Of a stretch of DNA of 64,000 bases, positions 1-40,675 are shown piece after piece. Under the pieces are notes generated by a model that was not told the DNA's origin, ran no database searches, and worked only from the letters and a program-made list of their open reading frames with translations. The translations under genes were made by a program, and so were the position numbers. The stretch covers positions 163,165 to 227,164 of the forward strand of contig BCKE01000063.1 in NCBI GenBank assembly GCA_001600495.1, in the 5' to 3' direction. How positions within the stretch are numbered: the first letter of the stretch is position 1; every line of letters begins with the position of its first letter. The DNA comes from Pilasporangium apinafurcum (taxonomy: Eukaryota > Oomycota > Peronosporomycetes > Pythiales > Pythiaceae).

Positions 1-3000
1 AATCCCACAGAGAAATACGAATTTGGCTACGATTTTGTCTACGGCTGCGACACGGAACAGGAAAAAGTCTTTCATGACATTGGTGTCCCGATCCTTGATC
101 GCGCGTTTGGTGGGTACAATGGCACTATCTTCGCGTATGGACAGACAGGAAGTGGCAAGACCTTCAGTATGAGCGGTGTTGCGGGATCCGAGGTCCTTGA
201 AGGACTCATTCCACGCATGAACAAGGCGATTTTCGAGCGGATCAAAGCAGACAGGCAAGCGAATCCGCATAAACTCTACCTTGTGGAGTGCTCGTTCTTT
301 GAGATCTACAACGAGATCATCTACGACCTACTGGACGCGAGTGGCAACAAGAAACAGAGCAAAGGGGGTTTAGAGATCAAAGAGCACTCCGTACTGGGTA
401 TTTACGTGAAAGACCTCCAAGAGCGGGTCGTTGAAAGCCGAGATGAAGTGATTGACCTCATGACCCAAGGTGCAGGCGCCCGCACCGTTGGCTATACACA
501 GATGAACGCTGAGAGTTCGCGGTCACACTCGATTTTTGTGATTAAGATTCACCAGAAGGATGCCACGGACGAAAGCAAAAACATCTTCGCAAAGATTAAT
601 TTAGTTGATTTAGCTGGTAGTGAGCGTGCTGCTTCAACAGGTGCACAAGGTGACCGACTGAAAGAAGGTGCAAATATCAACAAGAGTCTGAGTGCGTTGG
701 GAAATGTCATCAATGCGCTCGTTGAAGCCTCTCGGACGGGCAAGAAAGTGTTTATTCCCTACAGAAATTCCAAACTCACGCGCGTGTTGCAAGAATCGCT
801 GGGCGGAAACAGTCTTTGCTCGATGTTGGCGACGCTTTCGCCGGCAAACATCAACTTTGCTGAGACGCTGAGCACACTAAAATATGCGAGTCGCGCCAAG
901 TCAATCAAAGTAAACGCCAAAAAGAACGAGGCATCGAGTCAGATCAGTCAGCTGAACGATGAGATTGCTGCTCTCAAGAAGAAACTGATGGAGCAAACGT
1001 CGGCAACGCTCGGATTGGATCCAAAGGAAAAAGAAGAAATTGTTAAGCAATACGAGAAGCAGATTCAGGAGATGGATCGTGTACGACTGCAGACCTGGGA
1101 GGACAAAGCGCGACTTTCAAAACAACATGAACTCGAGCGGAAGCGCTTGGCGAAGGAAAAAGCGCTTGCCGATCAGAAAATTCGAGACGAACGCACGCGA
1201 AAATGGAAATTGCTCGAAGAGAAAGGCGATGTGGAGCTGTTGATGCGGGCATTAAGGGATTTGGATGGACCTAGCGGGACTAGTGCTATTGGTTTGAGAT
1301 TAGAAGAGCAGTGGTTAGAGCGAGCGCAGAAGATGAAGGCACTGGAAACGGATGCGAAAGACCACCGGACGCTCATTCTTGTGTTTAAAGACTCGCTTTA
1401 CAAAGATGCGGAGCAATGGGCAAAGCGCTTCCAACTGGATGGTAAAGCTGGTGATGGTGGTGGAGGTACTAGTTGTAATCGTAGGGATGACTCAGCGGCA
1501 GTACACATGACTGCCAGTCAATTGTGTAGTAAACTGCAAAATATTCAGCAGGAAAGCACGCAGTTGCTGCAAATCGAAAATCAATTGATTGTTGAAGGTA
1601 GCACATTGGCAAACGATATAATGAGTGAGCTACTACAATTTAAAGAGCAGCGTGCAATGATCAAGGCCAATCATACAAATAAACCGTCGACTTCAGCTCC
1701 AACCACAGGAGGTAATAAAATGGCGGTGAAAGAGGAGGAGCAGTTACTAGAAGAGCGTGAAAAAGGACTTTCCATGACGCTGATGATGGTACAAGCCCAA
1801 CGCGCAAAGCTGGTCAGTTCGATAAAGCGCGAACGGATGAAAATTTTTGACTTCCAAGTGATTACAACGCAGTTTGCCGCATACATCGACCAGCAGACCG
1901 CGAATCTGCAATCAGCGGAGGAAAATGGCAGCTCAGAGAAGGTAGCGAAGATCGGGATGTGGCGAAACGCCAAGGCGGCGCTATTGAATGTTGCCAACAC
2001 GTGGCGAACTGCTTGTCCATCCGAAACAGCAGTAGAAATTTCAACACCATTATTACCAGCTGTGACGTATACGTCAAAGGGAGAGACGAGACCACTTGGA
2101 ATCGAATCCAAATCGGTCTCAGACGAATGTTTGCTGATGTCTTCGAAGAAATCGGACGCCAAGTTTGTGCGGATGAACAGTCCACATTTCTGGCTGCCGG
2201 AGGAGCAAGACAAATCACCAGCGTTGATAATCGATTTCGAACTCCCAAGATTCTTTGATTCAATCATGATCGTTGGTGGAATGTTTAACGGGTCCACTAC
2301 TTTCCCATACACACCCAGTGGAGGTGCAAGTATTTCCAGCTTAAATGGACAGGTAAATCCCAATCGCCCACGAAGTCCAAATGACGCTGTTACTGCAGGA
2401 ACATCATTGCCTCCACAGTCTTTATTTGTGCTCAAATCAGCAAGTGAATTGCAGGCAGAACTACATAAATACAAACTGGCGGAAATCACCGGTGACTACG
2501 AGACAACCTATGCGATTTTGAGCAACGTCATGTCCTGGGTTGACTTGTTGAAGACGGCAGTTGTGCCCGCGAAACTGTTTGCGCGGCCTCCCGTGCGCTT
2601 TCTGCACGACGTCATCTCGATGGCCATCCATAACACAAAATTCGCCGACGATTTGTTCTCTCCCACTGAAAAAGATTATACACAACTCACATCCAAAACC
2701 GAGCGTGCGGATTACTTGACCAAGATCCTCGATTTCGTCCAGGAACATTACAAACAGAAGAAAGACCGTGGCGAATGCGACTATAGCGTCGTGATTGCTG
2801 CAACGGCATTTAATATCTTGACTGGAAAAGAAGCAACTGACACGCTCAAATTCCTTTCGTTCTTTGGTCTGGCAGCTATGGAACATGCAATGCTACACCC
2901 GCTGTCTACTATTACACCTTCTTCGGTCATATCTCCAAGTCAAACCCCAGTGACTACCACTGGAATCAATCAAGAAACCATCACTGCAGTGGCAAGTCCT

Positions 3001-5285
3001 CGTTCTTCCGAAGAGACTAGCAAACAAAATCCAGTTGATCAGAATATTACGAAACCGACCGAGCCAGCAGTAACAAATGTGGAGCAGCAACAGTCTCAAC
3101 TCCACTCGTGCTATGTGAAGAAACTACGTGTCGCAACGAGTTTTAACGGGAAAGATTGGACAGCATTGGGCGATTTCGAGGCCAACAGCGACGCCACAAC
3201 AATCAATTCCATCATGTTACGCAGTGGGGCCGTTGGAAGGTTCTTGCGACTCACGTGCATGGAATGGGCGGAGCTACCACTCTTTCAAGTCGAAGTCTTT
3301 GGACGCGAAGCTAGTGAGAGCAACGAGTTAGCGAAATCTATGGAGATGCTTGGGGCAAAGGCAACAGATTTTCTGCAACAATTACTCAATACAGCGTCGT
3401 TGCTTCTCGACGAAGCAAAAGCATTGTGGGAGAAAGCTAAAGATGTTGATCGTGAGAAGCAGGAGGAAATGACGAATCTCGTGGCCGAACTTTCACGCTT
3501 GAAACAACAAAACACAGGGCTGGAGAAGCAAGTAAAGGATTTACAACATCATCAGGCGCAATTACAGCTTCATTTAGATCAAGAAACCAAAAAAATCCAG
3601 GAAGAGCAGGATAAAAGCATGAAACTCACCACGGAAACGCAGCAAATAGTGTGTCAGCTTGAGGAAATGAAGAAGCAACGTGATGCAGTCGAAGCAAAAG
3701 TGAGTGAACAGGTCCACACGATCACAACCATCACACTCCAGCAATCAGAACAGCAAAAAACAATCGAGTCCCTTCAACAATCGAAACGTGATTTGGAGGA
3801 GCTCTGTACAAACCTTCGAAACCAGCTACAGAATAAAGACCAACAGGAAGGTCACAATGAGTCCAAGATTGCCAGCATTTACGGTGAGCTGATGGCAGCG
3901 AATGTGCAGATTGATGAGCTGAAGCGCCAGTTGGAGACCTCGGAGCAAATGCGAAAAGAACAGGAAACGCTGCGCGAGAGTTTGCATGCGCAATTGCAGC
4001 AACAGCGAAGTTCAATGGCTGAGAAAGAGACAAGATTAGAGCAGGTAATCAAACAGAAGCAACAAGATGCAGATCAAGCGCTACTTGGCATAAAAATGGA
4101 GAACGAACGGCTTCGCCGAGAGGTGGATCGCGGTATCGCAGCCGAAAAAATACATCAGACAAACAACAACGACTTGGTTGAACAGGTGAAGACTCTAAAG
4201 GACGAGATCGACGAGTGGAAACAAAAGCTGAAAACTGCTGAGGCTAAAAGCGCAGCCCTGGCCACGCCTGAGTATGATTCGCCTGCAAATAGCAACAACC
4301 GGAACGCCGAGGAACAACAAGAAAAGCTGTTGCTGGAAGCGCAGACCCGTGAATTGCGTTGTCTCGCGGAAATAGACAAGATGGAGACCAAATTGCATGT
4401 CTGCGAAGAAAATTTGAAGCAAGCCGAGCAGAAACTCGTAAAATCCGAGAAAGAGCATCAGGTGCTAAAGCAGCGTATTGCGGAGCTGGAAGATATTGAA
4501 GAAGAGCTGCAACTGCAATTGCAAGTCGTGATCGACGAACGCGATTCTGCGCGGCAAAAAGAGGAGCAACTTTTTGCCGAGAACAACGAAAAAGAGCAGG
4601 AAATTGAGCGCATACGTGACGGCTACGGTGCGTACCATTGATTGTCTCATTTGGTTGAGTAAATGGAATGACCTTTACCTGATTTTTTTGTTTGCATCTG
4701 TCATGTAGTGTGGGTAACAGATCGGATGAACTCGAAAGAAGACGAGCTGAGCGAGTTACAGGAACAACTGGAGAAATATCAATCGCTATTGGAAATTACG
4801 ACGAAGAAGAAAAACTCACTGAGCGCTGATCCATCGACCATTAACCTAATGAAGGTTTACACGCATGTCCTTGGTATGATTACACTTTTAATTATCGGTA
4901 TATTTCACGACATGAGGCAACCTGATTTTGACTTTACTCTTGATTCGTAGGTTCGCAAACAAGTGAGGAGCCTGGAACGGCCGAAGAAATGTTGCGTAAA
5001 CTGGCGGAATGGTTTGAGCGGTCGTCACCTCATTCTTCAGAAGCTCTAGTTGCTAACAAGGCGAACCACAAAGCATCCGTACAACTGTCCAATGGGCTAG
5101 CAGCACCATCTCCATCTTCTGACGAGCAGAAAAAGGTGAAATCGACACCGTCAATAGAGAGAATAGGAACGCGTAGCCGCATATCTGCTGATGGTACGGA
5201 CGTAAAAGACGGGGAAGTGGACTATGACGATGACTTTGACGTGGACGAGAGTGATAGTAGGAAGAAATTGGCTGTCAACACGTAG
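1..5285 (+). CDS. Kinesin heavy chain-like protein with discoidin-like and IFT54-like domains (5' partial)
   Basis: The frame is open from base 1, so the start lies outside the window; 1708 residues are visible. Exons: 1-4627, 4709-4873, 4951-5285. Introns of 81 and 77 nt (donors GTGCGT and GTATGA, acceptors TAG) keep the phase; an in-frame alternative acceptor ends at 4720. The motor is plain: P-loop GQTGSGKT, switch I NAESSRSH, switch II LVDLAGSE, then a coiled coil. Around visible residues 715-760 and 1034-1102 are two halves of an F5/8-type (discoidin-like) beta sandwich. Between them, at about 835-965, a helical stretch with PPVRFLHDVI resembles the N-terminal tubulin-binding calponin-homology-like domain of IFT54/TRAF3IP1. 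A long coiled coil (about 1105-1550) and an acidic tail DYDDDFDVDESD follow. Expected role: microtubule motor, possibly ciliary. Motor call very sure; IFT54 resemblance is my inference from memory of the family. Confidence 0.93.
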
Positions 5286-5412: not shown

Positions 5413-8400
5413 TCATTCTTCCCATCCAAGTTGATTCGCAGCGACACTGTCACCATCGGCGTCGATCTCTTGGCAGTTATAGATCGCATACAGCAATTTG
5501 TCGCGGAGCACCTGTTCACATGAATAGATCGGTAGTTCTACTGAGAAGAAACACGTGTGTGCAATTGGAAGGTAAAGATCAGCGCTTCGACCAGGCTGCT
5601 GCTTTGAAAACGACTGCAATTTGAACAGTTGAGGGAACTCCTTCTCATTCGCCGGCAGCCGTGAGCGTCCCCACACAAACCGTAAAAATGCGCTCCGTTC
5701 ATCGTGTGAGAAGTTACGCAGAACTTGCCAGAACCACACGATATGTTCGTCGCTGGCATTGCAACTCGAGTATTCAGTACATCTCTGCAGTAAATCCACA
5801 TCTATCTCAGGCGATCCGCAGACGAGTTGCTCCAGTTCAGACCCGCAAAAGCACGACAACAGTTTTGCCGGCACGACCTTCGCAAGCCCACGAAAAACTG
5901 CAGCAATTTGATCGTCAAACTCTTGCAAGCGATAGCGTTCGACTAGATCGGCGTACTCGCATCGCGTCGCAAAAGTGACCGGAATTGATGCACCCCCAGC
6001 TTTCAGCTCGACGACACGATTGTCAGCCGACAGTGTCGTAAATGTCTCCATCACTACATCTTCAAACATCTCGTCCGTCACGCCTAACTGGTCGATCGTG
6101 CGCATTTTCTGCATCGAATTCACAATCATTGTATCCATAGCCGCTAAATCTTCTACTGTCACGCATTCCCCAACCAATTTCTTCCATACTAGTAGCGCAA
6201 TATGCAACGGTAGATAGTGCTTACTCCGAATCGAAGCACCCAATAGTTTCCCCAGAAACTCGTACATCTGCAGCAGCATTGGCTGCGTTGCCCCGGGATT
6301 CAATATCCATTTTTCACGGCCAATACCAACGTTGTGTTGTGCGTTCGATGTTGTCAGCAGCAATGGCAACTGGCCACTTTGAAGCTCTTCGCAGTACTGC
6401 GCAAACGTTTCTCTGTATGGTCCCCCTGCATCCTGTGCGTTTTCGCCCAGAAATTGGACATGGTAAATGTTCTCTGCCCGTCGAAAATGTCCGCCATCCA
6501 GTGTGTTCAACTGCCTGAACGCTTGAGAAAAAAGTGTGTACCTTCCCTCCAGATCAACTTTTCCTGTAGCACGATGCCGCATCGCTTTCACGCGGTTCAG
6601 CGTGAGTTCAAACGCCACAGCACTATCGTTTGTGCGCCCGATGGCATCTTCCCACACTGCACGCTTCACGAGGTAAAACATCCGGAAGCGGTGCTCTGCC
6701 ATCAACTGATGAAGGAGAACTTGGTTGCCGTTTTCTGCGAGGCTAGTGGTGGTACCAACTGATGGAGAACGGAAGCCAACGTACGGCAGCACACGGTGGA
6801 TAAGAGCGTTGAACTCTTGCAGGACCTTAAAGCGCCGTGCAAGGCGATCGTGAGCATCTCCAGCTCTCGTCAGTGCACGGATGGTTAACTCCTCTTTCCC
6901 GTCTGAAATGGAAGATCCAACTACTTGAGCTGTGGTAATTTCCATGAGCACCGGCCACCGCAACATTTCTTCTTCGTCTGGTGCTATTTCGCCCCAAGTG
7001 ACGCGCAGCAGCTGATTTACGGTGAGCTGCTTTGTTTGAGCGATTTTATTGACATACTTAACCAGTTGCTGGTCGTGACGAGACAAAAATCCATTCGAAC
7101 CTTCTGCAAGCCGAATTGTATTGGCATGGAAGCGTCGACGGCCAATAGATTCCAAGGAGAAATGTGGGATCACAAAGAACTTGTACCCCCAATATTGTAT
7201 CTCGTCTTTCTTTGATTGATCATGCGATGAAAAGAACGGAGAAGAACCCTCTTGGTTCCTTTTCGCTGCTACGATGTCTGGGATGCAACCGTCATCCCAT
7301 ACGTCCTCATCCTGGCGTCTACTGTCGTCAGCAGCTGAAGCTGGCGAAGCGACGCAAATTCTTCCGATTTGGTCGTTGCCGCTGGCGTCGTTCGCCACCA
7401 TTCCCGATCCTTCATCCAGCTTCCACCAGCCAACCACACGTGGCGTAAATTCTTGAACTTTGTGTCGATACACTACCGGCTCCCATTTGGTGACACCATA
7501 ATCAAAGATCTCAAACTGAATATCTGTTTCAGAAATGCCACACGCCTCCAGAACTGACACGGTTTGCATCTCCTCCGCTTGGTATTTCGGTATGTGTCTA
7601 AATGGTCTTTGTCCAAAGTTCCACGCAATTGCTTGCGCACCCTGATGCCCAAGGCTCGCGGCGGGAGCAAATCCACCCTGGTGAACGGCATCAATCACAG
7701 AAAATGTATTGGATTCAGCTCTAGTCGATGAATGGTGCCGAGGTGAAAACGGCGAAGATAATGCCGAATCTGACCGTCGAATAGGGCTTTTTGGGCTTGA
7801 AATTTGAGTTCCACCTCTTCTGGGTGTCAATGGTCGTTCACTTAACAGCCAATTGACAGCCGTAGACACGTCTGCAGCACCAGACGCAGCTACAGATTCT
7901 TCTGATACTTGACGAGAAAATCCAATTGAGAACATCTCTTCCACAAGTTTATCAAAGCCATTTACGTGATCATCAGACGTCGCACTTTGATCAAATCTAT
8001 CATTATAAGCTGCAGTCGTGCTGTGTAAGTCCGTGGTCGCGACCAGCTCGCCGTTGATATAGAACAGCATATTTAACGTCTTGCGTTCGAATGCACAACC
8101 AATGATGTCACCATTACGGGAGAATATATCACTGAAAAAAGTACCACCACCGCTCGCGCGCGGACTGGCTATCCCGGTATTGTCATCAGCCTGACCCGCA
8201 GGTGCCTTATTTATCGTCCCCGCAAAATGGCTTAAACGCTGAGCTGGTTCAATACCAAACGAATGCGGGTCTTCACCGACCATTATGTCACGACCGCTGA
8301 GCTTCGCATGCTTCCAAATCCACCCAATCGACATTTTACCAGTCGTTAATGCATGAGCCTCAAAATACACGACATCATCCAACCTCGATGCTTCAGTTGG

Positions 8401-11400
8401 AGGCGACGTCGAAACAAAACCATTCAGTCTCACTGCTACCAAGTCTTTTCCAGTCCGGTTTGTTGTCACGAATTTTTTCATATGTGGTGGAACGACGAAT
8501 GCTCGTGATGGAGATCTTGGAGGAGACGGTGGTACTATCAATGGCGACAGAGCAGATTTTAATTGTCGTGGAGTTCCAGATTGCATGCTAGTGGGTCGAT
8601 TCCCTCTGTCTGCACCTTCCAAACCGTTAGCATGGCTGCGCACTTGTTCCATTTGAAGAGCGACATCCCATATTCGAACATCGCATAAATGACCATGAAG
8701 CGGTTTTAATTGAGAGGCAAAGTAATGTTCCCCAAACTGAATTGATGCCAGCGGTATATGTCGCAGTTGTTCCCGTTGTTTACATCGACTGGAATACGCT
8801 AACTGGCCATTTTGATACAACAACGCTTTCGAACCGCACCAAACGAATGCAACATGAATCCATTCGTCTACAACTGCCTTAGACATGTCAACGCTATCAT
8901 CCAAGGTTGTAGTCGATCCGTTCATAGAGAGCGAATCAGCATGTGCTGTGAGCACAAATTTCTTGTGGCGATCGATCGACACAACAAGGGAAAAGCGAGA
9001 ATCAGAACCGCTGATGCGAACTAATTCCATCCCCGCATCCCCGTCAAGACTATCTGGTAGTTGAATTGTATCTGAATCAATGTATAGCCAGAATTCGAGC
9101 GTGTAGTCATCACCGAAGTTGAGTTTGCTTGTCTCTGGGTCGAGATCCAATACAACTGCCGTCGAACCAGTCAATCCCACACTTCCACAGAAGTCAGTGA
9201 TCTGAGAGCTCAGATTGAGTGCGGACTGTGTTGTACTACCGGATTCGATTTCATATAAGAGGGAATCGCCATTAATAACCAGTGATGAGAAAGGTTGAAC
9301 GGTAAGACGAAGTGCCTGAATATCGTATCGTCCCTTCGCACCAAAGCGGTAAACATTTTCGTTTCCAGTAACCTCCCATCTGATACGTAAGGCAGATCCA
9401 GCGTCACCTTCCCATGCAACAACTTCGAGTACCGTACCAATGCTTCCTGCGCCACCATCTTCGTTTCCATACTCCCAATCGAGAGATCGAACGACATGAT
9501 CACCAGCACGAAGCAATGTGCCTCGTCTTGACGCTTCAGATGAGAATAAGTGAGGATGCTTATCTTCTTCTACATCGCCGTTGAGCCCAGTGAAAGTGAA
9601 CTTGGGGTCATTTTCACCCTGATTATCGTAAAAACGGATTTTATCGTCCGCTGGGAGCTTTGTGCGTTTGTCAAATCTGATTTCCAGTGCAATAGCTCCA
9701 GGTACATGAACAGTGTCGCGACTCGTCTTCTTGCCTTCAGTTAGAAAAGGGTGACGACTTTCCTTCGCGATCACATTCGACATGCGATTTTCACGGAAGT
9801 CCAACATCATCCCGACAGCGTCGACAAGCTGTGTGTACCAACTTCGATGAACGGGTGTTGGAAGTAATGCTATAGGTGAGCAGTACAACATGCGGAAGTC
9901 AATCTGATCAGTGGGATCTGTGACAACAACTGCAACACGAAATTTGTTTGCTTTTATGAGTAAATCCAATGCATGCCATGAAGATGCGCTTTCGCAACCG
10001 CTCTGTCCGCATATAACAGCGGCTAACATTCTGTTCTTCCTGACCACCAATATCCGTAGATTGAAGTTTAATTGGATTGACAGTACGTCGCCCTCGCGAA
10101 GTGGGCTTCCAATTGCTGCAATATCACTGAAGTGGTCATCTCCAACACAACTTTTTATGCCTGTATCACTCCACTGAATAAAAAATTTGGGTTGTTCACT
10201 ATCTGACACCCCTTCTGCGATACCAACCACGATAGTGCCAGTAAGTTTTTTGACACTAATCTCGAACTGATGAAGTCCAGCTGGGATCAACTCTTCACTT
10301 GCCCAGTATCGCGATCGGATCCGCTCATCAAGGCTACCCGAAATCGGCATTGAATATTGGTCGTCTGCGATCCTAACGTAATGTCCGCTGTCAATCGCAA
10401 GATCCAAAGCTAATGAGCATTGCACTAGAACTTGTAAGTACTGCGATTTCGACTCAACTCGCTCTTCTGTTTCGTATTGTGCACGAAGTTGGGCGTTTAG
10501 AATATCACGGACTCTCTCCACGACAAAGCACGGAAGCCTGTGAAAAGCTTTTAAGTTCTGAGTAAGATTGATCACAATCTGCAAAATATAGATCTTGATG
10601 CGTTGCGGAAATTCTTCGAGGCAGAACGCCAGTGTTTGGATCAACTCATATGAATATAGGAACTCATATATCTCATCACCTGGCAATAAGTGCGTTGCCA
10701 AGGATGATGCAATAGATAAAATCCAACAATACATTGCCAATAGCGCAACCGTTGTTTCCATAGTTTTCCCAGATGTTTCCACATTGATAAATGTATCATC
10801 TTCATCGAAGATTCCAATGGCGTATAATTTGAAACCCCAATCATTTTGGCTCGAATCAGAGTGGAAATACACTTCAAACGACTCCGCATCGATAATTAAA
10901 GGCTCTCGACCACCACAACCCGGCCAGGTTTCACTTCCTCCGCGTCCTCCATATTGAGTTTCGCCAAACGTTTCCGTTCGATTTGATCCTTGCTTGTAAA
11001 ATGCTATCCAGTCGCAACCTGATTCACTCTTGGACCGTGGATCAAATACAACCTTAATCTTCTTGGCCCCCGGTATCGATACAACCCAATATTCGTCCAT
11101 ATTATCGTGATATGGATGGGTACTTTCAAGAATTCGCATTGCTCCGCGGCCCTTAGGCAGGATTTGTGGGGCTGCTTGCAGTAGCTCAGTGCAGCGCATC
11201 AATAGTTGTTGTGCCGCAACTTGATTGGCTTTATCCAATATGCACTGCTCAAGTCTGCTGCCCAAGGCAGAAAGGAGATGGGATTCATTATCGTATCGAA
11301 GTTCTTGTTCCTCTTGCAAAAAGTAGTGTGAGAGCAGTAATAACACTTCTTCGACGCTCCCCAGTTCATCAAGACGAATAGGCTCATGCTGTAGTCGACA

Positions 11401-14400
11401 TGAAAAAAACTCTAAAATGGCTTCTCGAGCTGATTTTGTGGCCAGTGCGCGATGGCAATCATACGCAAAGCTATGGAATCGCTTTGTTTGCTCCTTTAAT
11501 CCTTCAAACGAAAACTGCGAATAGAAATGAGTCAATAACTCACGCTCCGGATTCGAGTCATCCATCTCGATAACGGTGTGAGACGATTCTAACTGTGCAT
11601 CATCAATACCCAATACCAAGAGATCTTCGCGTTTCATGAAGGAATCAGCCGACACAACATGTAGTTTTTCACCCGACCGATGCCAAATCCATCCCTCAAT
11701 ATCGTCACACACAAATTTCAACCATCCAGATTTGTGCTCCAGCACCACAAATTCATCTCCTACAGCTAGCTCTCGCACAACCTCAGCTGTATCGCTCCTG
11801 TCTTTGTAAACGTTTACGCCACCGCTCTCAATGACACGATATTTTCGCTGGTTTGATTGAATCCCGTCCGTCATTTCTCGCGCTTTGTTCCGCCAATATA
11901 TCAGGTCTCGCACTGGATCTTTCACCCACAGACACCGTGTGACTTCGTCTGCGTTAAGTGCTTTCTCAAATCCGTCAAACTCTTCTCCAAACGGAATTCG
12001 TTGATGAAGCATCTTTTCGTTCAGAATCTCAAACATATGATAAGACGTTTTGTTCAACTGTTCCAGGGAAAGAGTCAGCGGATAAACTGATGGGAATTCC
12101 GCATTGACTGTAAACTTCCATCCCCAATCGACATTCGATGCGTCTGTGCACCACAACAGCGTAAACGAATCGCTGGGGATGGTAAGAGGTGGTCTCTCAC
12201 CGACACCTGGCCAATTGGCAGCGTCACCGACCCCAGAGTATTGGTACGCTCCCCAACGATCTGTAAGTGACTTGTCCTTGAAAAAGCAAAGGTAATCGCA
12301 GCCAAGCTCCGTTTGACTTTGAGGATCAAATGTGACATGTAACATGGATGCACCACTGAACGTTACCGCCATATACTCCATCACAGAATTTGAGTAGGGA
12401 TGTTTAGATTCAAAGATTTGCGACTTTGGGGACGACCGTGTCGGTCTCCCATCGGTTGGTGCATTGGCAAGCTTCGTCAGTAACGGTAGCAGAGGCGCAA
12501 ATGAATGCACGATCTCCTTATTCTTTTCTAGCCCAAACAAAAGATTAAGTGACTTCAAGCATCGAGCCCTAATGTCGTTGAATGCGCTGACTACAATTGA
12601 CGGTGGAACTTCAGGTGGAAGAGTCAAAACTTCCTCGTATGCGTGAGCAGTGAGTTTAAATCCCCATTCGAGAGGAACATTTGACGAGCTTTCTGTATGA
12701 AACCGCACATCGACACTGGATGCAGTGATACGAAGCGGGGGAATATTCCCTGCACCAGGGAAATGGTCACCAAAATATTTCTCTTCGCCCCAGTATTCCT
12801 CTTCTGCCCCTGTTTTCTTATTGCGTTTAACGAATTGAATATAATCATTTGGTCCTGCCGTGTACGACATGTTGTCAAAATAAATGACGATCTCGTTGGC
12901 TCCAGCAAAGCTAAGCGGATATGTCATATCTTCGCCTCTCGAGTACGGATGCTCACTTTCCAACACCTCCACCATCTCGTTTCTCGTCGTTTTTGGCTTA
13001 AATATGCCATAATGGTGTGACGCTTCAACATTAAGCTGTAAAATGCGTTCATATGCTTGTCGCAGCTCTGATGCAGAGGAAATCATTCCACGTAGAAAAT
13101 GAGACAGTTCAACGTGCTTTTCATCATTTAAGTACATGACATCACCCACTGGGACATCAATCAGACGGGAGCGATCACAATCGAATAGAACTCGAGCTAC
13201 ACGAGTTTCATTTCGCAAGCAGAACTGTACTAAGAAACCGCTTTCAATCGATTCCTTGCCATCAATATTAACGCAGCATCTCACTCTTCCACCAATATAG
13301 ACTCCATCATATGTCCCACCAAAAAGAGCAAAAATTGCTAGCACATGCCCAATTGTCTCCGAAGGAAATAGGTCCATCGCCCTGTCCCATGACTTCACAG
13401 GTTCCATTGACGAATTTATCCAATAAACCAGGGCTTCTCTCCAGCTAAAATGTTCACTCATTCGGCGGGCAAGCGAAATGTATCCTGCGATGAGACTTGT
13501 TTCACTTTCCGACGATATTTGCAACTTCAGCATTCCATCAGCAAACTGTTCGTTTTCTTGCTGAAGGTTATTTCTTATGTCATGGAGTTCCCTTACTTCG
13601 TCATCATATTTTCGCCAGACATTTAAGGAGTTTGAAAGACACATCATCAGAAATTCCAAGAAAGTGCCGTTAATAGCCGGAAATGCTCGTGTAAATTGCG
13701 CGTTCATCACCTCTGGAGACAGATGAGCAGCCAAATCGGTCATCACTTTCATACTACCACAACGAACTTCCACGGACACAGTGTCGCTGAAGGCCAAAAA
13801 CATGAGATTTCCAATGTTTTCAGGAGTAGCAATCAAGTTTTGGCTGAAACTTGTCTCTGAGCATGTTCGAATCAATCCCAAAATATGTAAAGTTCTTTCG
13901 TTCGGTACGAGAACCGGTACATTTTCAGGTCCTGGGCACGTGGATTGGATTTCAGCAATTAAATCAGCCTCGGAACAAGCGTAGTTGAGCACTTTCGGCT
14001 GATTAATCCAGCATTTCGAAGCCTTGGCCATCAGAACACGACTCGGTGGTTCTCCGAAATAAAATGGATATGCATTTAGACAAGGACTCCAAATTGATGA
14101 CTCATTCTGCGACTCAACAATTGGGAATTCCGGTGAAGCAAGCAACCTAAATCCCCAGCCGCTAGTACTCCCCTCGTTATGAAAGTACACCCAAAATTGA
14201 TCGGAGAAAACTTCAATAGCATTTTGGACCGGCTTCTGGATGTCAATACCAGCATTGCGACGTCCACGGGATCGATTACTTTGAGCACCTGGAAAATTAC
14301 GCTCAGGATCATGATATTTCCCCGAGTATTCTCCTTCACCCCAACACTCATCAAAGCGTTCGTCCTTGTAAATCCGAACAAACCCGGTCGACTTGTCAAT

Positions 14401-17400
14401 GTCACAAAGAGGATCAAATGTGACACGTATTCTTAAAGCGCCTGGGATATGCACAGCCCAATACTGATCCACTGAGTCAGCAAATGGATGAGCAGACTCG
14501 ACTATCTTAGAGTAAGAAGCATTTACATTCCCATCCATAATCAAGAATGGATCCAGCAAATGTTGAGCAGTCATGGACCCATTCACATATAGCTTCAGCA
14601 TCTCTTCTTCTTGAACAATTGCAATATGAGTCCATTCATTAACATCCAATTCGTGATTTACTGGATAAACATTTTCTTTGTCAGATCCGCATGCAATTTT
14701 GTATGTCAATTGACGCTGATCATTCATAAACAGGCCAAGATGGCTCCAAGGGGTGGCATGGACGGTATCATCCACTAATGTCTTGTTCCCTTTGTAGAAA
14801 ATCACTCCGCCAACCCCTTCATCAGCGAGAATGATCTCGAATATACCCGATTTCGGGTCAAATGTATGTTCACTAGTGGCACCAGAATTATTCCACCGAA
14901 TTTCTATGATCGTAGAATCGCGTATTGCGGTAACAATACCGGTTTCTTGTTCTCCGCTGTCGTCACCTGAACCTTTCCAATCGGGACCATGTCGGACTTC
15001 GTCGCCGACCTTCATCGCGTATAGTGACGAATCACTTGCAAGATATAGCCATAGCGTAAAGGAATGGTTCCACCGAACGCTTGTACTCTCTAAGCAAGGT
15101 GAAGTCAGACCTGGTGAATTTTCAGGCAAATATTGTGGACGAGTATTGTACATTTCGTCGTGTAGCACCCCTTGTTGGTCATAGCTCTGCGACGAACTGG
15201 TAATGGAAACGACACCATCGAGTTGAAATCCAACAGCAGCGATGAGTTGTTTTTGAAAAGCAAAAGCATCTGTGCCTTCGTTATTCTCATCGCCGGATTC
15301 CAAACTTGTATTTGGTTTCCCACCAACGAAACGCGACAGAAATACACTGAGGATAGATTGTGCAGCTTGACGTATTCGTAGTGAGTTGGACGATAATAAT
15401 CTCAAAATTTGCGCCAGTATGCGACTGTCATGTAGCAAATACGAATCTTCGACTTGATAATCCAGTGCACAGGACTTGAGTATCCCGATGATTAACGGCG
15501 AGCTCGAATTATCTAGGGACGGTACTGAATTTAACACTTCACTGAAACTCCCTAGGCACATACCGAATGCTTCAGCAATTTGTTGGCGAAGTGATTCGTC
15601 GCAGCCGCTTAGCCCGGTGTCAAAGTGCACACGCGAACCCAATACGGTGGACGTGTCAGCAATCTTTCTTACTAGAGTACTCTCAAGCGAGTAGGAGGCT
15701 GCAATAGCCTTCAACGTCGATGCAAAAGATTCCAATAGCAGGCACTGCAATCGCATACTGGAACAAAGTTTCAGTGTACGCATGAACACTTTAATACCTA
15801 GTACGCGACTTGTCGCTCGTCGATTGCGCTTGTTAATCACATGTCTAAGTTCTTCGACATCCACGTCACTCTGAACGAATTCAAGGACTTGCTCCGTTAC
15901 AGATTTCACCTGTCCGCGTTTCATTCGCTCACTCGAATTTCGTCGGTACTGAAATAGGTTTCTTAACTCCGTTGCAGCCTGTAACTCGTCTAAAAGGTTG
16001 TACCATTTGTCAAGTGGAGATTCAGACGGACTGGACTTCCCAATGGCATACCCGTACTTTGCCAGCAANCCCCACCGCCGTTTCGCACCACTAACGTAAG
16101 AAAATGATGCCGGTGTAAGCTCTAGGAGAAATTTTGCACGTTTCACCACATTTGTGCATAAAATCTGTAGAGCTTCTTCGGATACTCCTTTAAACGCAGA
16201 GGGTTGACGTCTCAGCCTTCGTGAGCGTCGCCGACGCGGAGATGCAGTCACATGAATACTTGCGTCTGCTGCATCACCTAGGTGAAACCAATCCCTCATT
16301 TTTTGAGCGTTCTTCCAGCCGCGAAGCATTTGTTGGGAGATATCAGATCGTAAATTTTGTGCAAATGCGTAAGCATCCATACCCCACATATTATGATGCA
16401 AGATTGCTGCCGCCACTGCACGAACCGCAGTATTGACACCGTCGTGCGAAAGGTTTTGAGATGCACTTGAAAAAGATGCTGAGTTCGGTAGTGTTCGTTG
16501 GCGAAGTGCCCCACTTCGTTCCATCAGCGCTCCAATGACTGCGGCGGCTTCTGAATCCTCTGGTGGGTTGGCAAAATCTTGAAGCAATTGGAGTACATTA
16601 GTGTTCTGATTATCTTCGGCACAGACACCACTTCTGAGCAAATCACTTTGTAAGACACGATCGTTCAATAGTTCTGTTTCGTCGATTGGAGCAAACAGAC
16701 TCCCATCCACCAGTACCTTCATACTTTCATCCACAATTTGCACAACGTTTTCCTGAAAGAAAACCATCCAATGCAAACGTAGGGACGATTTCTTTTCCAA
16801 GATTTCCCCTATTGCTGTGAACTTGAATCCCCAATCTGTATTGGAGCTATCTGAATGGAACAATACGTAGCAATGATCACTGTCAATGACTAGCGGAGCG
16901 TTCGTTCCAACTCCAGGCCAGTTGAACTCCAAGTCGCGACCAGAGTAGCACTGACTTCCATAAAAGGCACCTTGAGTTTTGTCTTTGTAAAAGGTAACGT
17001 AGTCGTAATTAAATTCTGTCCGACTCTGTGGATCAAATGTGATCGAGATTCGGCTCGCACCAGGAATACGAAGTTCAGTTGTCACGTCCATATTATTCTC
17101 ATACTCATGGGCCGACTCCATGACTTCCTGTTTTCTCCTCACAGATATGCCTTCAATGAGTTGCTCGCGTCGTGATGGCTCAATCATACCCACCAGGTTA
17201 TCCAAAAAGGTCATGAGTTTCAGCATTTTTGGGGTATTTACCTTGAGAAAATCATAATAGATGACCTCAAGCTGACGATCATTATTAGTACGATCTTCAT
17301 AGTTGTTGTCACAATTATTGTTCATCACCCCACTCTCATTTGCTGCAAATTGTGAGGTAAAGTCGATTCGTTTTCTCAAAAATGTGATACCACATGACAG

Positions 17401-20400
17401 TACCACAGGCGAAAGGATGCCAACAAACCCATTTTCCATGGCTTTTTCGACTTGACGCCAGTGCTGTTTTAGATCTGACGAACATATTTGAGTCGTTAAA
17501 TCAGCTAGCACACTTTGAAATCCGTCACAGAGCGCTCCAAAGACAGTAAAAGCAGTTCCGAGGACAGACTTGATGCTCGGGCCACTTGCTTCACCAACTT
17601 TTATAAATATTGCTTGAGCGATGCAATTGATAAGCGATACTAATTCTGCAGAAACAATTTCCTCGTCCGCCGATAAAACAATAGCCCCATTTTGCGCGCA
17701 AACACTGAAAATCTGTCGCTTTTGCGTTGCGATAGCGAGCTCGATGAGTTTTAAAACTTGGCTGACAGTTTCAGATTTTTCAAGAATTGAGGGCTGGATA
17801 GTATCGATTCGCGCAGATATATCGACCAAAAGTCGCACAATAATCGTCATGTCCGTATAAGATGATTTTCCCTTCTCCCACAAATGCAAATACTCAAGAA
17901 TACGTCCGAGCTGCTCAGACATGTTCGAATGGAAAATGTGAATAGAGGTAGTGTATAGGTCCAGCGCAGCAGTAACCACACGGATCCTATTGTCCTCCAT
18001 TGAGTCATGTTTACTTGGATCGGAGACAATGTTTAATACTCGGTGGATGGCATCATCACTTGGTCCCTTGTATTGAATTAACCCATTCAACGGGGTTGAA
18101 AGATCAGTTCGTAATAATTCTGATACTTTTTCCGTATTCCCACTGGATGTACGAATCAGAGCCTCAATATTAATAGTGAGAACGCTGAGACAGGCTTGGA
18201 GGCAGTAAATCTGAAATGGTGTAGCCTTGTTGGCCTTGAAGACTGAAGCAAATTCATTAATCAACGCCAGCAATACCGTGAAGCTAAAGACGCGAAGATC
18301 AGCAACAAACGGAATAGCCAATTCTCCCGCCTGCTCACTGAGAGATTCACTGATGTCACTTGCTGTAGCATTTCGATGCAGAAAGCTAAGCACACGGATA
18401 GCGATTTTCTCTTCATAAGTCGGCTGTGGAAATGCTTCTGGATCTGCAACAGCGCTTATATTTGTATCTTCGCACAGCAACTGATCCAATTGGAATCTTG
18501 CGCATGTGCTCGGAATAAGTGCTTCATTGAGTGATATTCTTTTCCCCGTGTTTTTATAAGATACCAAAGACGATTTCGAACTGTCAAACATCCAGATAAG
18601 ATTATTTCGTGCATCAAAGCAAGCTGCCGTTCCCGCAAACGCTCGCTTGAAGCATCCCAAGGCAGTTTTGTCTGGACCTACACAGCTCTCACCATCCGCT
18701 CCCTTGCATAATCCCGTTTCACAGTCAAAAACTACTCCATGGAAGGTAGTCAACCCAGCTGTAGTTGCTGAAGACGTGTCAGTGCTCCCTGATCCTAAAT
18801 CTTGGAGAAACATACAGATTGATCCTCCATTCGTGTAGCATATCGGCATGGCAATACTCAACGAAGTCACGTGTAATTCCATCTTGAGAATGTTCACGAG
18901 AAAGCTCACATACGCTTGACATTGATTTTGTTTAATACTTATCTCAAATGATCGAACAAACGAAAGGATGTGGCCAGCAGTGGAACTCGTCTTCGGTGAA
19001 AAAACTTGCACTTGAAAGCGATCAGCACTCATTTCCAGTTCATAAATAAACGCGCCTTCTGTGATATAGGAATACAACGGCTTTGTGAACTTCATTGCTA
19101 CCACAGATCCATCACACTCGGGAGAGCTCTCTAACACAACCACATCCGTAACATGTAGGTCGTATGGAGATACTCGAATCAACTCGCGTGGCTGACGTTT
19201 CTTGAGGCTTTGACCAGTTGACAAAACATCTTGTGGACACAACAAACTCAGATATAGCCAATCACCACAAAAAACGAGACTTGACATATAGATAGAATCG
19301 CTTCTATCTACGTATCGGCTGATCCGATCTCCATACTTGAGCACTTCACACTCCAATCCCGCTTGTCCCTCAACAGAGTAGAGAAGTATCAACGTTGAGC
19401 TATCTGTCTGCATAGCTGGTGGAGAGTCGCTGGATGCTAAAACACCAGATAATATCTCTGGGGAGTACAAAATACCGTCCTCTTCTCCGCCAAAGCCGTC
19501 ATCTTTAGGAGTATTCCCAATCCTTTCGCAAAGATTCAACAACGCTTGTTCGCCAAGTGATTCAAACGATCCATAAAAAGCTCGATAGATATGTATGTCT
19601 TCGTTTGACATGTCGATAGATTGCAAGTACTGCTCTTTCCATTGTGGAGGGGGAAGTTGAAAACTATCATTGTCTTTGAAAATCCAAAATCCCTCCACTT
19701 CTCCAACAGAAAATGAGATAAACAACGAAAAATCAGCTAGCGTTGTCACTAGGCCCTCCAGCGTTTCTGTTACAAACACTTGGTGGACTATTTTGGCTGA
19801 TTGAGTATTTTGCGCACGGACCAGATCTTCTCGGGCAACCGCAGTGACATCTCTTCCAGATCCGTACATCAGATTCGTAAACGTTCTCTTTCGCTTCAAC
19901 ACGTGTGCATACTCTGCAGCTGTGCGTTGAGCATAAATTCTTCCGGCAATCGTAAAGTTCAGTCCTGTTCCAACCTTTACGAGGCCCTTTCTTAAGCTCC
20001 AAACATATATAAAGCTTCCATCGGTTGCAATAGATGACAGGAGTTGATGACTGGCGCGCTCGTTCACGTCTGTGGCACCATCATCTGTATTTGCAATCGT
20101 TTTAAGAGGAAATTGTTGCAATAAAGATCCATCTTCGAGTGTGCCCAATTTGTAATCGAGTCGATAAGTTTCCAGTTGATCAACGAGACTGTTGGCCCAT
20201 GAAGTAAACGAACGTCCCTGCAAAACACCACTGGATTGAGCTTTATTGTCAATGCTGCCATGAACTATCTCGTTGACGAAGTCCAGCAATAAGCCTATGC
20301 GACCACTGCTCACACCAAATGCGAGTAAGAGCAGCATCAGTACCTGTTTCTGACTAGCTGTGAGATCTTGTTCCTGCAAAAGACTACGACAGAACTCATG

Positions 20401-21258: not shown

Positions 21259-21469
21259 TACTTCCAGGAACAATGGGGGGAAAGAGAAAGGAAATATGCA
21301 GGTACATTGAAGTAGCCCAGATACAATGTGGAACGTTCCACAAATGATGTGAGACCTCATCTGAAATTGTGCTCCTCCTCGCGTTATACAATTTTTCTAT
21401 CAAAATGGGGTATAATTCCCCAATCTCGGCATGAAAGTCTACTCACCCATTATCCCAGCAGAAGCGTAG
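21259..21469. promoter_or_regulatory. Head-to-head intergenic region between HECT ligase and phospholipase B-like gene
   Basis: Only 211 bp separate the chosen starts of the two divergent genes, so their upstream control elements must overlap. It contains an inverted repeat at 21406-21422 with arms TGGGG and CCCCA around TATAATT. I see no experimentally defined promoter motif. If the ligase begins at the upstream ATG (21360) the shared space shrinks to 109 bp. Confidence 0.4.
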
Positions 21470-23730: not shown

Positions 23731-25414
23731 ATGGCTGAAGAAAATAAGAACGTAATTGATTTGTCGGGAGATGGTGGTGTGCTGAAAGAAGTGTACCAGG
23801 AAGGTTCGGGTGATCTCCCTCCTGCTGGCTACGAGATTCGAGGTAAGATCCAAAAATTATAAGCAGCGGCTGTTCTATTACAAGCATATCTTAAATTTTC
23901 AATTTTGCGGTGCTAAACAGCGCATTACACCGGTACTTTGCTGGATGGTACGAAATTTGATAGCTCTCGCGACCGTAATTCGGAATTTAAGGTGTGTTCG
24001 GAGCTTTCAACGGCTTTACCATCGGGAGGAATGTTTTTGCTAATGATGTGATGCAATGTGACTGTTTATGTGAGTAGTTTGTGCTTGGTAAGGGCAATGT
24101 TATCAAGGCCTGGGATTTGGCTTTTGCCACCATGCAAGTCGGAGAGGTACGATTTCATCAATTACTGTCCCATAATCTATCTGATGTGAAAGAGATACTC
24201 ATGCTGATTCATTTGCATTCCCAAATTTGTAGAAAGCTATCTTGACTTGCAAACCTGAATATGCATACGGTGAAAATGGTAGCCCACCAAAGATTCCAGC
24301 AAACGCCACGCTGAAATTTGATGTTGAACTGCTCGGCTTCAGCCCGAAGGCCAAGGAAATGTGGGAAATGGATGCTGATGAGAAACTGACAGAGTGTGCC
24401 AAGTTGAAAGACGAAGGGACAGCGTTGTTTAAGGCACAGAAATTTGACGAAGCCGCTGCCAAGTATAACGAAGCGGCTTCGTTCATGGAAGATGTGTATG
24501 ACGTGTCAGATGAAGACAAGCAGAAGATGAAGGAGTTGCAAACGACCTGCTTTCTCAACGCTGCTATGTGTTTCTTGAAGGTGAAGGACTACTCTGAAGC
24601 CGTAGTCATCGCTACGAAGGCATTAAAGAACGATCCCAACAGTGTCAAGGCTTTATACCGTCGTGGTGTTGGCCGCCTTCATTTGAACGATTTGGATCGC
24701 GCCAAGGAAGACTTGGTCGCTGCTGGAAAAATTGATCCGACGAATCGTGATGTTCGTCGTGAATTGGACGTGCTGAAAAAGAAGCTGAAGGAGGTTCGAC
24801 AGCACGAGAAGTCGGTCTTTGGCGGGCTTTTCAACAAAGTATCAATGTACGACGACAAATCTACGGTCGAAACTGAACCCGTGCCAGACCCAAACAACCC
24901 GAAGGTGTTCTTTGATATCACCATCGATGGTGAAAGCGCCGGCAAAATCGTGATGCAATTGTTTGAGGATATTTGCCCGAAGACGGCTGAGAACTTCCGC
25001 GCGTTGTGCACGGGTGAAAAGGGTAACTGCTCGACTGGGCAGCCATTGCACTACAAGGGCTGTTCATTCCATCGCGTGATCAAGAGCTTCATGTTGCAGG
25101 GCGGTGATTTTACTCGTGGTGATGGTACTGGCGGCGAAAGTATTTACGGCGAGAAGTTCCCGGACGAGAACTTCCGTCTGAAGCACTCAGAAGCCGGCTT
25201 GCTTTCGATGGCAAACGCAGGGCCGAACACGAACGGCTCGCAGTTCTTCATCACCACTGTGCCGACGCCGCATTTGGACGGCAAGCACGTGGTGTTTGGT
25301 AAGGTTGTTGAAGGATACGATGTGGTGACAAAGATCGAGAACCTCGAGACTGACTCTGGAGACAAACCAAAGAAGGATGTGATCATTGCTGACTGCGGTA
25401 TTTATGGATCGTAA
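23731..25414 (+). CDS. FKBP-TPR-cyclophilin dual peptidyl-prolyl isomerase
   Basis: Four exons (23731-23842, 23921-23991, 24078-24146, 24233-25414) give 477 residues; every junction has a GT donor and AG acceptor and keeps phase. Residues 1-123 form an FKBP domain with HYTG, KFDSS, VIKAW and YAYG pocket elements. Helical TPR repeats occupy about 140-265. Residues about 300-477 are a cyclophilin with the catalytic [29 protein letters not shown] and GKHVVFGKV blocks. The cyclophilin carries histidine where human CypA has Trp121 (TPHLDGKH), a change that in CyP40-type proteins weakens cyclosporin binding. The order FKBP-TPR-CYP matches the dual immunophilin (FCBP) class described in apicomplexans. 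No signal peptide, so cytosolic; the TPRs may dock a chaperone such as Hsp90 (inference). Confidence 0.92.
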
Positions 25415-37999: not shown

Positions 38000-38144
38000 T
38001 TTTGTTAAAGTTGTGACTGCTGCTTGGCAGTTTTCATAGACAAAAACCCAATTTACCATCATTTCGGTGTGTTTTTTAAATAACCCAAATACACATCACG
38101 TTAAATTACTCCTTTAATTTGACGCAACTTGTATACCATTAATT

Positions 38145-40675
38145 ATGAGATCCTTGGCAGTACTGTACACACCTGCAATGGGCGCTACAGTTGTGAATTC
38201 GTGCGCGCCATTCAATAGACAATTTACCCACGAACAGGCCGACTGTTGCAAAGTGAAGGAGGTGATGGCAACGGCGCTGGCGACGATGGAGAGTGAGATG
38301 GTGCTGCTGGCGATGCTTCCAATCGCCGATGAGATCATGCTGATCCAGACTCCGCGGAAGCGCACGATCGGCGACCTCGAGACGTTTATTGTCGACGAGT
38401 ATAAGCGCGTCTTTCCGCATCACAACCGCGGGTTGTCGCGCGATTTGCGGATCCAGAAATGCGTTTCGAAAGAGTTAGTAGTCAATCGCCGCCATTACCA
38501 TCACCATAACAATAACAATCACAGTGATAAAAAACAGAATAAGAGTCACTGCTTTGTGGAGCTCGCCAAAAACGTCCAAGTCGGGAACGTGTTTGAGAAC
38601 ATGGAGCAGATTTACGTGGTGACGAACCACCCGGCGAAATCATCGACACCACCGACATCGAACAACAAGACTCTGGCGCTGCCAGCACCAAGTGGAGAGG
38701 GAAAGGCTGCAAACAAAAATGCGAAGAAGCAGCAGAATAAACCAAATGCCAACGATGATAAGCAAAAATACTCTGAACAGTCTGCAAAGAAGCCTGAGGC
38801 TGCTGCTAAGAAGCAACCATCCAAGGAAGTAGCAAATGTTTCTAAATCAAAGCAGGATGCTCCACCAAGTGTTAATGAAAAAACGAATGGCGCTGCTGTA
38901 AAGCCTAGTAAAGATGAGGTAGCTGTGGAAAGCAAGGATGCAGAAAAAAAACTAACTGCAAAGCAAAAACGTGGGCGTGGTCGCATAACTTCAATGGAAA
39001 ATGGTGGATCAGAGGAATCAATTGCTGCGGTACCAGCAGCAAAGAAAGCAAAAGTGACACCAAGTGCCATGAACGGCGATATCACTGAGCCAGATGCTCC
39101 CGCTGCAGCACAAAAAAATGTCAATTCTGCCCCTACTACTGCTACTCCAATTGAAAATGAAAAAGCAAAGCCGAAAGCTGCAAAGGCGAAAAAGTCACCA
39201 AAGTCGTCAAATAAAAGTGATGTTTCGACGATCGACAAGGCCGTAACTGTTGCACCAGCTGATGGCAACGAAAAGGAGAAACCGAAAGCCATAAAAGCAA
39301 AGAAGGCGTCTCCAAGTCCTACAAACGAATATGACACTTCAACAGTCAAAGCGAAAAAGAAAAGTGCAGGAAATAATCCCTTAGAAGAGCCAGCTGCAAA
39401 ACGGGCCAAGACCAGTGAGTCGTCCAAGCAAAAAGAAAAAGCTATCAAGACTTCAAAAGCTAAAGCTGATGAATCCGCGGTGCAAACTGAAGAGCCCGCA
39501 GGTAAGAAGACAAAGAAAGTAAAGGAGCATGCAGAAGCCGATAAATCACCATCTCTCGAGACAGAATCGTCAACACCCAAGAAGCTTGTACGTCGTCCTA
39601 AACCAAGTGGTCAGGAGGCGGAACAAGATGAGAAGGCAGAACAAGACGAGAAGGCGACAGTGGTGAAAAATCCAGTGAAGAGCGCTCCAATGGGTAGCTA
39701 CAGGGAACGATTGGCTATCATTAAACAAAGGATGGAAGCAGAGAAAGCGGCGGCGAAGCGAGATAATGGTAATGAAGTGGCTTCTGCCGCAATATCGAAG
39801 CCAGCTGAATCCGCGACCACTAATCCTGTTGAACCAGAATCATCAGTGACACCAAAGTCGGTTGCAAAGAGTGATAAAGCAAAACCGAAACCTTTGCAGA
39901 AGAAAGCCGTTGAATCGAGTGATGACTCTGATTTTGATGATGCACATGAGAATAGTGCTGTCAGTAAACCATCTCCAAAAGCAGTACATTCTGAACAAAA
40001 AGGCAAGTTGGAAAAGCCTGCTGCTACTCCCCAAAAAGATTCTACTACCGAAAGTGATTCATCAGATGATGAAGAACTGGATTACTCCCAAAGTCTTCTA
40101 GCGGATTTGACAAAGAATGGCAAGTTTTAGTAGAGACAATCATCCCTGCAGCGTAACAACTGTTTAACTGATACTTTGCGGATTTGATCTTACTATGAAT
40201 TTCGTTTAGACTCGGACTACGAGCCTGCATCACAGAGTGCTACCTCTGCACTACCTCAGCCGCCAAAGAAACCAAAAGCCACAAAGAAAACCAAAGTTGT
40301 GTTGCCAACTGATGATTTCGATCATGCTGCCCAAGAAACCTCACAAGAAACTGATTTATCACAAGATCGTACCCAAGCATGTAAGTCTCTACAGTCTCGC
40401 CTTTCTTCACTAATTTGATGGCATCCTTGGAATTGGTTGAGTGCGTGGCCAAATCTGACGTACTACTGGTGGTTATATTGCACATAGCCCAAGAATCAAA
40501 CAGTGTGCTGCTCTCATCTCTCTCCAGAAATCGGTTCTCCTTGGACAACATCCCAGTACCAAAGTTAAAGAAGTTTGGTACAAATAAGTCAAAGAATCCG
40601 TTTGCTTCATCCAGCGCAGCAACAGATCCTACACCCAAGAAACGTGGTCGTCCTCCGAAAAACAAAGCAGATTAG
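38145..40675 (+). CDS. Lysine-rich nucleolar-type protein with C-terminal AT-hook
   Basis: Three exons: 38145-40119, 40210-40380, 40488-40675; 777 residues if the first ATG is used (ATGs at 38265 or 38286 are equally plausible). Intron 1 has a GC-AG structure: GCAAGT at 40120-40125 and TAG at 40207-40209, and only this donor gives the phase that reads through exon 2. The N-terminal ~120 residues (TIGDLETFIVDEY ... NVFENMEQIYVV) may be a small globular ubiquitin-like fold, vaguely coilin-like. The middle is a long disordered Lys/Ala/Pro tract with KAKK-type repeats and acidic serine clusters (SDSSDDEELDYS, ESSDDSDFDD), as in Nopp140/SRP40-like proteins, which are CK2 targets. The end, KKRGRPPKNK, is an AT-hook. 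A nuclear or nucleolar role is inferred from composition. Confidence 0.82.

What the first reader, a model, noticed from the sequence alone, without database searches (positions are those of the whole stretch)
2145..3305. Kinesin carrying an IFT54-like domain nested inside a discoidin-like fold
Downstream of the motor, two halves of an F5/8-type fold flank a helical stretch whose core PPVRFLHDVI and following spacing recall the N-terminal tubulin-binding CH-like domain of IFT54 (TRAF3IP1). A motor and an IFT-B-type domain in one chain would physically couple a kinesin to ciliary transport. IFT25 is itself a discoidin-like IFT protein, so both accessory folds have IFT parallels.
Basis: partly seen in the sequence, partly recalled or inferred. 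Interest (0 to 1): 0.75.

Follow-up and report, generated by a model that had tools for sequence, protein, structure and literature searches.

The report
Kinesin with nested IFT54-type domain
A protist motor protein carries, inserted in a loop of a second sticky domain, a piece otherwise known from the cilium-transport protein IFT54; the combination looks real and unusual, but what it grips is not yet shown.

Summary
One stop-free frame (window 1-4641, +; 5' end outside the window) encodes a kinesin motor with intact nucleotide-binding motifs, then an F5/8-type (discoidin) domain split by a ~268-residue insert. The insert carries a CH-like domain of the IFT54/TRAF3IP1 family (Pfam MIP-T3, E 7.6e-12). 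In the intact chain Pfam sees only the second discoidin half. With the insert left out, the match extends to profile 21-117 (E 2.2e-9), while four controls start at 59-61 (1.3e-5 to 3.4e-5). The CH domain sits between two Pro/Ser/Thr/Asn/Gln/Gly-rich tethers.

The part of IFT54 essential for IFT-B function is its C-terminal, IFT20-binding coil, with no match here. The IFT54 CH domain is reported to bind tubulin and, directly, dynein-2's WDR60, and is dispensable for ciliogenesis. I read it as a tethered second grip on tubulin/microtubules or dynein-2, not as IFT-B membership. No relatives were found in the collections open to me, structure models were poor, and conservation is untested. New variant of a known kind.

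The parts
1..915 (+). Kinesin motor domain (N-terminal part lies outside the window); P-loop GQTGSGKT, switch I NAESSR, switch II DLAGS intact
   Evidence: Pfam PF00225 E 6.8e-104, residues 4-302, profile 39-327 of 327; motifs; KIF1A, OSM-3, KIF13B and KIF3B among the best PDB matches
916..2091 (+). Neck and mid region, no known domain
   Evidence: Pfam lists none at E up to 10 for nt 1051-2052
2092..2298 (+). N-terminal half of a split F5/8 type C (discoidin) domain
   Evidence: No Pfam hit alone; joined with the C half it extends the match to profile 21-117, E 2.2e-9 against 1.3e-5 to 3.4e-5 in four controls; aligned to neuropilin-2
2299..2418 (+). First tether, 68% P/S/T/N/Q/G
   Evidence: composition
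2419..2541 (+). Lead-in before the CH-like domain, probably helical
   Evidence: composition; helices in a low-confidence model
2542..2904 (+). IFT54/TRAF3IP1-type CH-like domain (MIP-T3), core KLFARPPVRFLHDVI
   Evidence: PF10243 E 7.6e-12 in the whole chain, 3.3e-13 for the fragment; PDB 5fmt, 8bd7, 2eqo, 5fmu
2905..3099 (+). Second tether, 65% P/S/T/N/Q/G
   Evidence: composition
3100..3306 (+). C-terminal half of the split F5/8 type C domain
   Evidence: PF00754 E 6.4e-6 alone (26.8 bits, just under the cut-off of 28.2), profile 62-117; 29 bits in the whole chain
3307..4627 (+). Long coiled-coil-like tail
   Evidence: 116 of 416 28-residue windows above the 99% shuffle level, against 5 of 277 in the motor and 7 of 377 in discoidin plus CH (own crude score)
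4709..5285 (+). Last two exons (4709-4873 and 4951-5285) after introns 4628-4708 and 4874-4950; the tail ends in an acidic stretch
   Evidence: one of 8 frame-keeping splice combinations, chosen by donor sequence; inference

Best explanation
Shown by sequence: an N-terminal kinesin motor, a discoidin domain opened in one loop by an IFT54-type CH-like domain between two low-complexity tethers, and a heptad-rich tail, all in one frame. Inferred: the chain dimerises through its tail and walks on microtubules, so each dimer presents two tethered IFT54-type CH domains. These bind what the IFT54 CH domain binds, most likely tubulin (free dimers as cargo, or the lattice as a second microtubule contact). 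The discoidin domain holds the CH domain out and may bind a further protein or membrane partner. Action in the flagellum is likely if the organism has one, but is not shown.
For: PF10243 match across nearly the whole profile. All 4 PDB sequences matched at E up to 10 are IFT54 (three are labelled IFT54 or TRAF3-interacting protein 1, and 5fmt, labelled 'flagellar associated protein', is identical to IFT54 of 8bd7 over the printed stretch). No other CH-type family is listed at E up to 10 (HMMER's filters drop most matches above about 0.1). Over 60 aligned residues it is 22/60 identical to 5fmt and 19/60 to 5fmu, which are 30/60 identical to each other, so the core has been kept. Split discoidin shown by the join test with controls. 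Motor motifs intact. Heptad-rich tail. In print: the IFT54 CH domain is involved in tubulin binding (PMC4617596 passages; PMC10320715 passages citing Taschner 2016).
Against: Tubulin-contacting residues of IFT54 could not be checked (that paper is not held). The aligned 60 residues carry net charge 0 (5fmt 0, 5fmu +1), so no extra basic patch is seen. Structure models are poor and Foldseek gives nothing significant; in the 50 best rows shown for each I saw no CH or IFT54 chain. The stretch just behind the motor is only weakly heptad-like (6 of 133 windows), so dimerisation rests on the distal tail. No relative was found in the viral and prokaryote collections open to me, so long-term conservation is unshown. 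No ciliary family appeared in 12 of the 13 neighbouring frames of 250 codons or more, the 12 that I scanned.
Confidence: 0.42

Rival explanations
1. The tethered CH domain is a hook for dynein-2: it binds the WDR60 tail as the IFT54 CH domain does, so that this kinesin carries or positions the retrograde motor independently of the IFT-B train.
For: Human IFT54 CH binds the WDR60 N-terminal extension directly in a pull-down with purified proteins (PMC10987677, passages); CH is minimally required for IFT54 to bind WDR60 (PMC10110421, passages). The domain here is IFT54-type and sits between low-complexity tethers; [quoted passage not shown]
Against: WDR60 of this organism was not available; WDR60-facing residues not checked; ciliary location unknown. 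[quoted passage not shown]
Confidence: 0.28
2. The kinesin is an IFT-B-coupled motor because it contains an IFT-B-type domain.
For: IFT54 is an IFT-B subunit and its family domain is present; DYF-11/IFT54 may help load kinesin-II on the IFT complex (PMC2268012, passages).
Against: The IFT20-binding C-terminal coil of IFT54 has no match listed here; IFT54 without its CH domain still supports ciliogenesis, so CH is not what places IFT54 in IFT-B.
Confidence: 0.08
3. A lineage-specific cytoplasmic or hyphal kinesin in which the CH domain is only a general second microtubule contact (cross-linking or processivity), with no ciliary role.
For: Most of the 105 kinesin architectures in a 45-genome survey were specific to one organism (PMC2867816, section 6); [quoted passage not shown]
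Against: The domain kept is IFT54-type and not a generic CH.
Confidence: 0.17
4. The insert is a passive, decaying passenger or an assembly or gene-model artefact.
For: Only one sequence was available; no conservation test.
Against: No stop and no need for an intron between the motor and the second discoidin half; both flanks of the insert are halves of one domain, which a random junction would not give; core residues kept.
Confidence: 0.05

Closest known systems
IFT54 / TRAF3IP1 / MIP-T3 / DYF-11 (IFT-B2 subunit)
   Same: CH-like domain of the same Pfam family, 22/60 identical to 5fmt (Chlamydomonas by recall); low-complexity linker next to it
   Different: No C-terminal IFT20-binding coil family listed; fused to a motor; domain is internal and not N-terminal
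N-terminal kinesins near kinesin-3 and kinesin-2 (KIF1A, OSM-3, KIF13B, KIF3B)
   Same: Motor; PDB scores 272.5, 270.6, 267.2 and 262.5 bits
   Different: No FHA hit; tail with discoidin and IFT54-type domain; family not assigned
Neuropilin and factor VIII discoidin (F5/8 type C) domains
   Same: Joined halves align over residues 14-153 of 156 with neuropilin-2: best single stretch 1.4e-6, 9.2e-14 for the two-domain chain as a whole
   Different: Intracellular by context (inference), and one loop opened by a ~268-residue insert
KCH kinesin-14 of plants (kinesin with a classical CH domain; recalled, not from a call)
   Same: A motor and a CH-class domain in one chain
   Different: Different CH class, different motor family, no discoidin (recalled)

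Membership tests
Kinesin superfamily | Motor domain PF00225 with P-loop, switch I and switch II | tested here: met
   E 6.8e-104; motifs
A named kinesin family (2, 3, 9, 16, 17) | Placement in a motor-domain tree | not tested
   No tree was built; PDB bit scores of kinesin-3 and kinesin-2 members are too close to decide
IFT54 | MIP-T3 CH-like domain | tested here: met
   PF10243 E 7.6e-12
IFT54 | C-terminal IFT20-binding coiled coil (MIP-T3_C; family name recalled) | tested here: not met
   No such family listed at E up to 10 in residues 1-1546 or in the tail and the last two exons searched apart; that the model is in this Pfam copy was not checked
IFT54 | Binding of tubulin or WDR60 by the CH domain | not testable with these tools
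   needs bench work
F5/8 type C (discoidin) domain | Match over both halves of the profile | tested here: met
   joined halves profile 21-117, E 2.2e-9; four controls start at 59-61; the intact chain shows only profile 47-116
IFT25 (discoidin-like IFT protein) | Sequence relation to IFT25 | tested here: not met
   0 of 60 matched PDB sequences (E up to 10) is named IFT25; distant kinship of fold not excluded
CH-like fold | Predicted structure superposes on a CH domain | tested here: inconclusive
   single-sequence AlphaFold2 pLDDT 49.9, all helical; Foldseek 0 matches at E <= 0.001

The most novel reading that the evidence does not exclude
A one-chain motor-adaptor: a kinesin that has captured the IFT54 CH domain inside a discoidin loop and uses it as a tethered hook for dynein-2 (WDR60) or tubulin, transporting flagellar cargo or the return motor without needing the IFT-B train.
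Probability: 0.25. Interest if true: 0.78.

Novelty: new variant of a known kind. Interest (0 to 1): 0.52.

Why it matters
The CH domain of IFT54 is dispensable for ciliogenesis in the IFT54-knockout cells and the Chlamydomonas mutant described in PMC10320715, yet missense changes in it are found in nephronophthisis patients (PMC4617596), so its own job is unsettled. A natural fusion of just that domain to a kinesin separates it from the rest of IFT54 and suggests a portable cargo or track hook. If conserved, it would give a direct, testable link between a kinesin and either tubulin supply or dynein-2 handling in flagella, and a neat case of a domain nested in the loop of another.

Tried and rejected
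Relatives: two protein scans of viral contigs matched no pattern. Two alignment scans of viral contigs and one of genome contigs gave 31, 83 and 29 pattern matches, none confirmed as a relative. These collections hold viruses and prokaryotes, so this says little about other protists. No whole genome is held for the window.

Structure: two single-sequence predictions (residues 690-1115 and 840-972) were low confidence, and Foldseek against the PDB gave 0 matches at E <= 0.001 for either (50 of 135 and 50 of 170 weaker rows seen). These are not evidence against the fold.

Profile search with alignment A1 is circular, because A1 contains IFT54 pieces; its E-values are not used.

Considered and rejected: IFT25 kinship of the discoidin; false CH resemblance; chimera. 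CCDC22_CC at 0.003 to 0.097 is below its cut-off and was set aside. Charge comparison is uninformative. The join test used one junction that I chose by eye; other junctions were not tried.

Literature: ten searches ran. None of the titles or abstract starts that were listed describes this architecture. Listings were cut (20 of 194; 20 of 1,150; 25 of 92; 30 of 75), and the 45-genome kinesin survey keeps its full architecture list in supplements that I could not open. I therefore do not claim it is absent from print.
Full report
What is there. The + strand frame from the window start to 4641 is open for 1,546 codons. It is cut by the window start, so the kinesin motor is seen from profile position 39 onward and anything N-terminal to it is unknown. 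Pfam finds the motor (6.8e-104), a MIP-T3 CH-like domain (7.6e-12) and an F5_F8_type_C match (1.3e-6) in the same chain. P-loop, switch I and switch II motifs are intact. No stop, and no need for an intron, lies between the motor and the end of the discoidin, so the combination does not depend on a gene model. Two short introns and two small exons complete the gene at 5285 in the model I prefer, which is one of 8 splice combinations that keep the frame.

The IFT54-type domain. A phmmer search of residues 802-970 against all PDB chain sequences at E up to 10 returns four sequences: 5fmt, 8bd7, 2eqo and 5fmu (E 2.6e-6 to 7.3e-5). Three are labelled IFT54 or TRAF3-interacting protein 1; 5fmt is labelled 'flagellar associated protein' and is identical to 8bd7 over the printed stretch. 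By recall, 5fmt and 8bd7 are from Chlamydomonas and 5fmu from mouse. The Pfam match runs over profile 13-110 of 113. Over 60 gap-free residues the domain is 22/60 identical to 5fmt and 19/60 to 5fmu, against 30/60 between those two. It is therefore an IFT54-family domain and not a generic CH. I did not test it against each NN-CH profile separately. No other CH-type family was listed at E up to 10, where CCDC22_CC appeared below its cut-off.

The split discoidin. In the intact chain Pfam sees only the second half (profile 47-116). The C-terminal half alone scores 6.4e-6 (26.8 bits, just under the cut-off of 28.2; profile 62-117) and the N-terminal half alone gives nothing. With the insert left out, the two halves match profile 21-117 at 2.2e-9 (38 bits). 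Four controls with the N half shuffled (two), reversed, or replaced by another stretch of the same protein score 1.3e-5 to 3.4e-5 (24.4-25.8 bits) and begin at profile 59-61. One junction was tried. Against the PDB the joined form aligns over residues 14-153 of 156 with neuropilin-2. The chain as a whole, with two discoidin stretches, scores 9.2e-14; the best single stretch scores 1.4e-6. Neuropilin-1 and factor VIII follow. The insert (about residues 767-1034, nt 2299-3102) replaces the loop between the strand ending IMIVGGMFNGST and the strand beginning YVKKLRVATSFNGKDW. By recall from factor V and VIII structures this is one of the ligand-face loops; I did not test that. The CH domain is flanked by stretches of 68% and 65% Pro/Ser/Thr/Asn/Gln/Gly, so it is likely held on two flexible tethers.

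The tail. My own crude heptad score puts 116 of 416 windows after the discoidin above the 99% shuffle level, against 5 of 277 in the motor, 6 of 133 just behind the motor, 10 of 192 in the mid region and 7 of 377 in discoidin plus CH. A dimer through the distal tail is the natural reading but is inferred.

How it may work. I read passages, not whole papers. The IFT54 CH domain is involved in tubulin binding (PMC4617596; Taschner 2016 as cited in PMC10320715; the Taschner paper itself is not held). It is minimally required for WDR60 binding (PMC10110421), and purified human IFT54 CH binds the WDR60 N-terminal extension directly (PMC10987677). [quoted passage not shown] see also PMC10191852). 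It is dispensable for ciliogenesis, while the C-terminal coil that binds IFT20 is essential. Against the idea that the domain is idle, missense changes in it occur in nephronophthisis patients. This chain has the CH domain and no listed match to that coil. So the fusion gives the motor the portable hook of IFT54 and not its IFT-B anchor. I rank tubulin or microtubule binding first, dynein-2 hooking second, and IFT-B membership low.

What could not be done. No eukaryote collection was open, so conservation, presence of a separate IFT54 gene, and kinesin family placement are unknown. For context, Phytophthora infestans is reported to have each IFT protein described for Chlamydomonas, with the flagella-associated kinesin genes among those induced during sporulation (PMC3471859, passages; IFT54 is not named in its main text). 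If the window is from an oomycete, a separate IFT54 would therefore be expected; this is an inference.

Novelty. A survey of 1,624 kinesins from 45 eukaryotes found 105 domain architectures, most in one organism only, and 1,300 of 1,624 kinesins with no domain beyond the motor (PMC2867816, section 6). An odd tail is thus not rare in itself. The nested IFT54-type domain is the surprising part. None of the titles or abstract starts listed by my ten literature searches describes it, but four listings were cut and the survey's supplements could not be opened.

Noticed in passing
window 5413-21396, -: Giant frame of 5,327 codons: HECT ligase with MIB_HERC2, Laminin_G_3 and weak UBA, SPRY and SH3 matches. 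By eye it carries several copies of a CUB-like repeat (HPY...PGA...FDP.S.TE...CDY...WPGVG...DWGFK) that Pfam scores only weakly as CUB (0.0027, below its cut-off) in one half; the translation holds one ambiguous residue (X).
   Followed up: partly
window 24233-25414, +: One frame joins the end of an FKBP domain, TPR repeats and a cyclophilin: two kinds of peptidyl-prolyl isomerase in one chain.
   Followed up: no
window 41061-45209, -: PI3/PI4 kinase domain together with a FYVE finger and a weak DEP match (below cut-off) in one frame.
   Followed up: no
window 57880-59004 and 60314-61129, +: DDE_3 (below cut-off) and MULE transposase-like frames near the window end.
   Followed up: no
window 38118-40130, + and 55389-56309, -: Frames of 670 and 306 codons without any Pfam match at E 0.001.
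   Followed up: no
window 63462-63534, +: tRNA gene, the only Rfam match at gathering level in the window.
   Followed up: no
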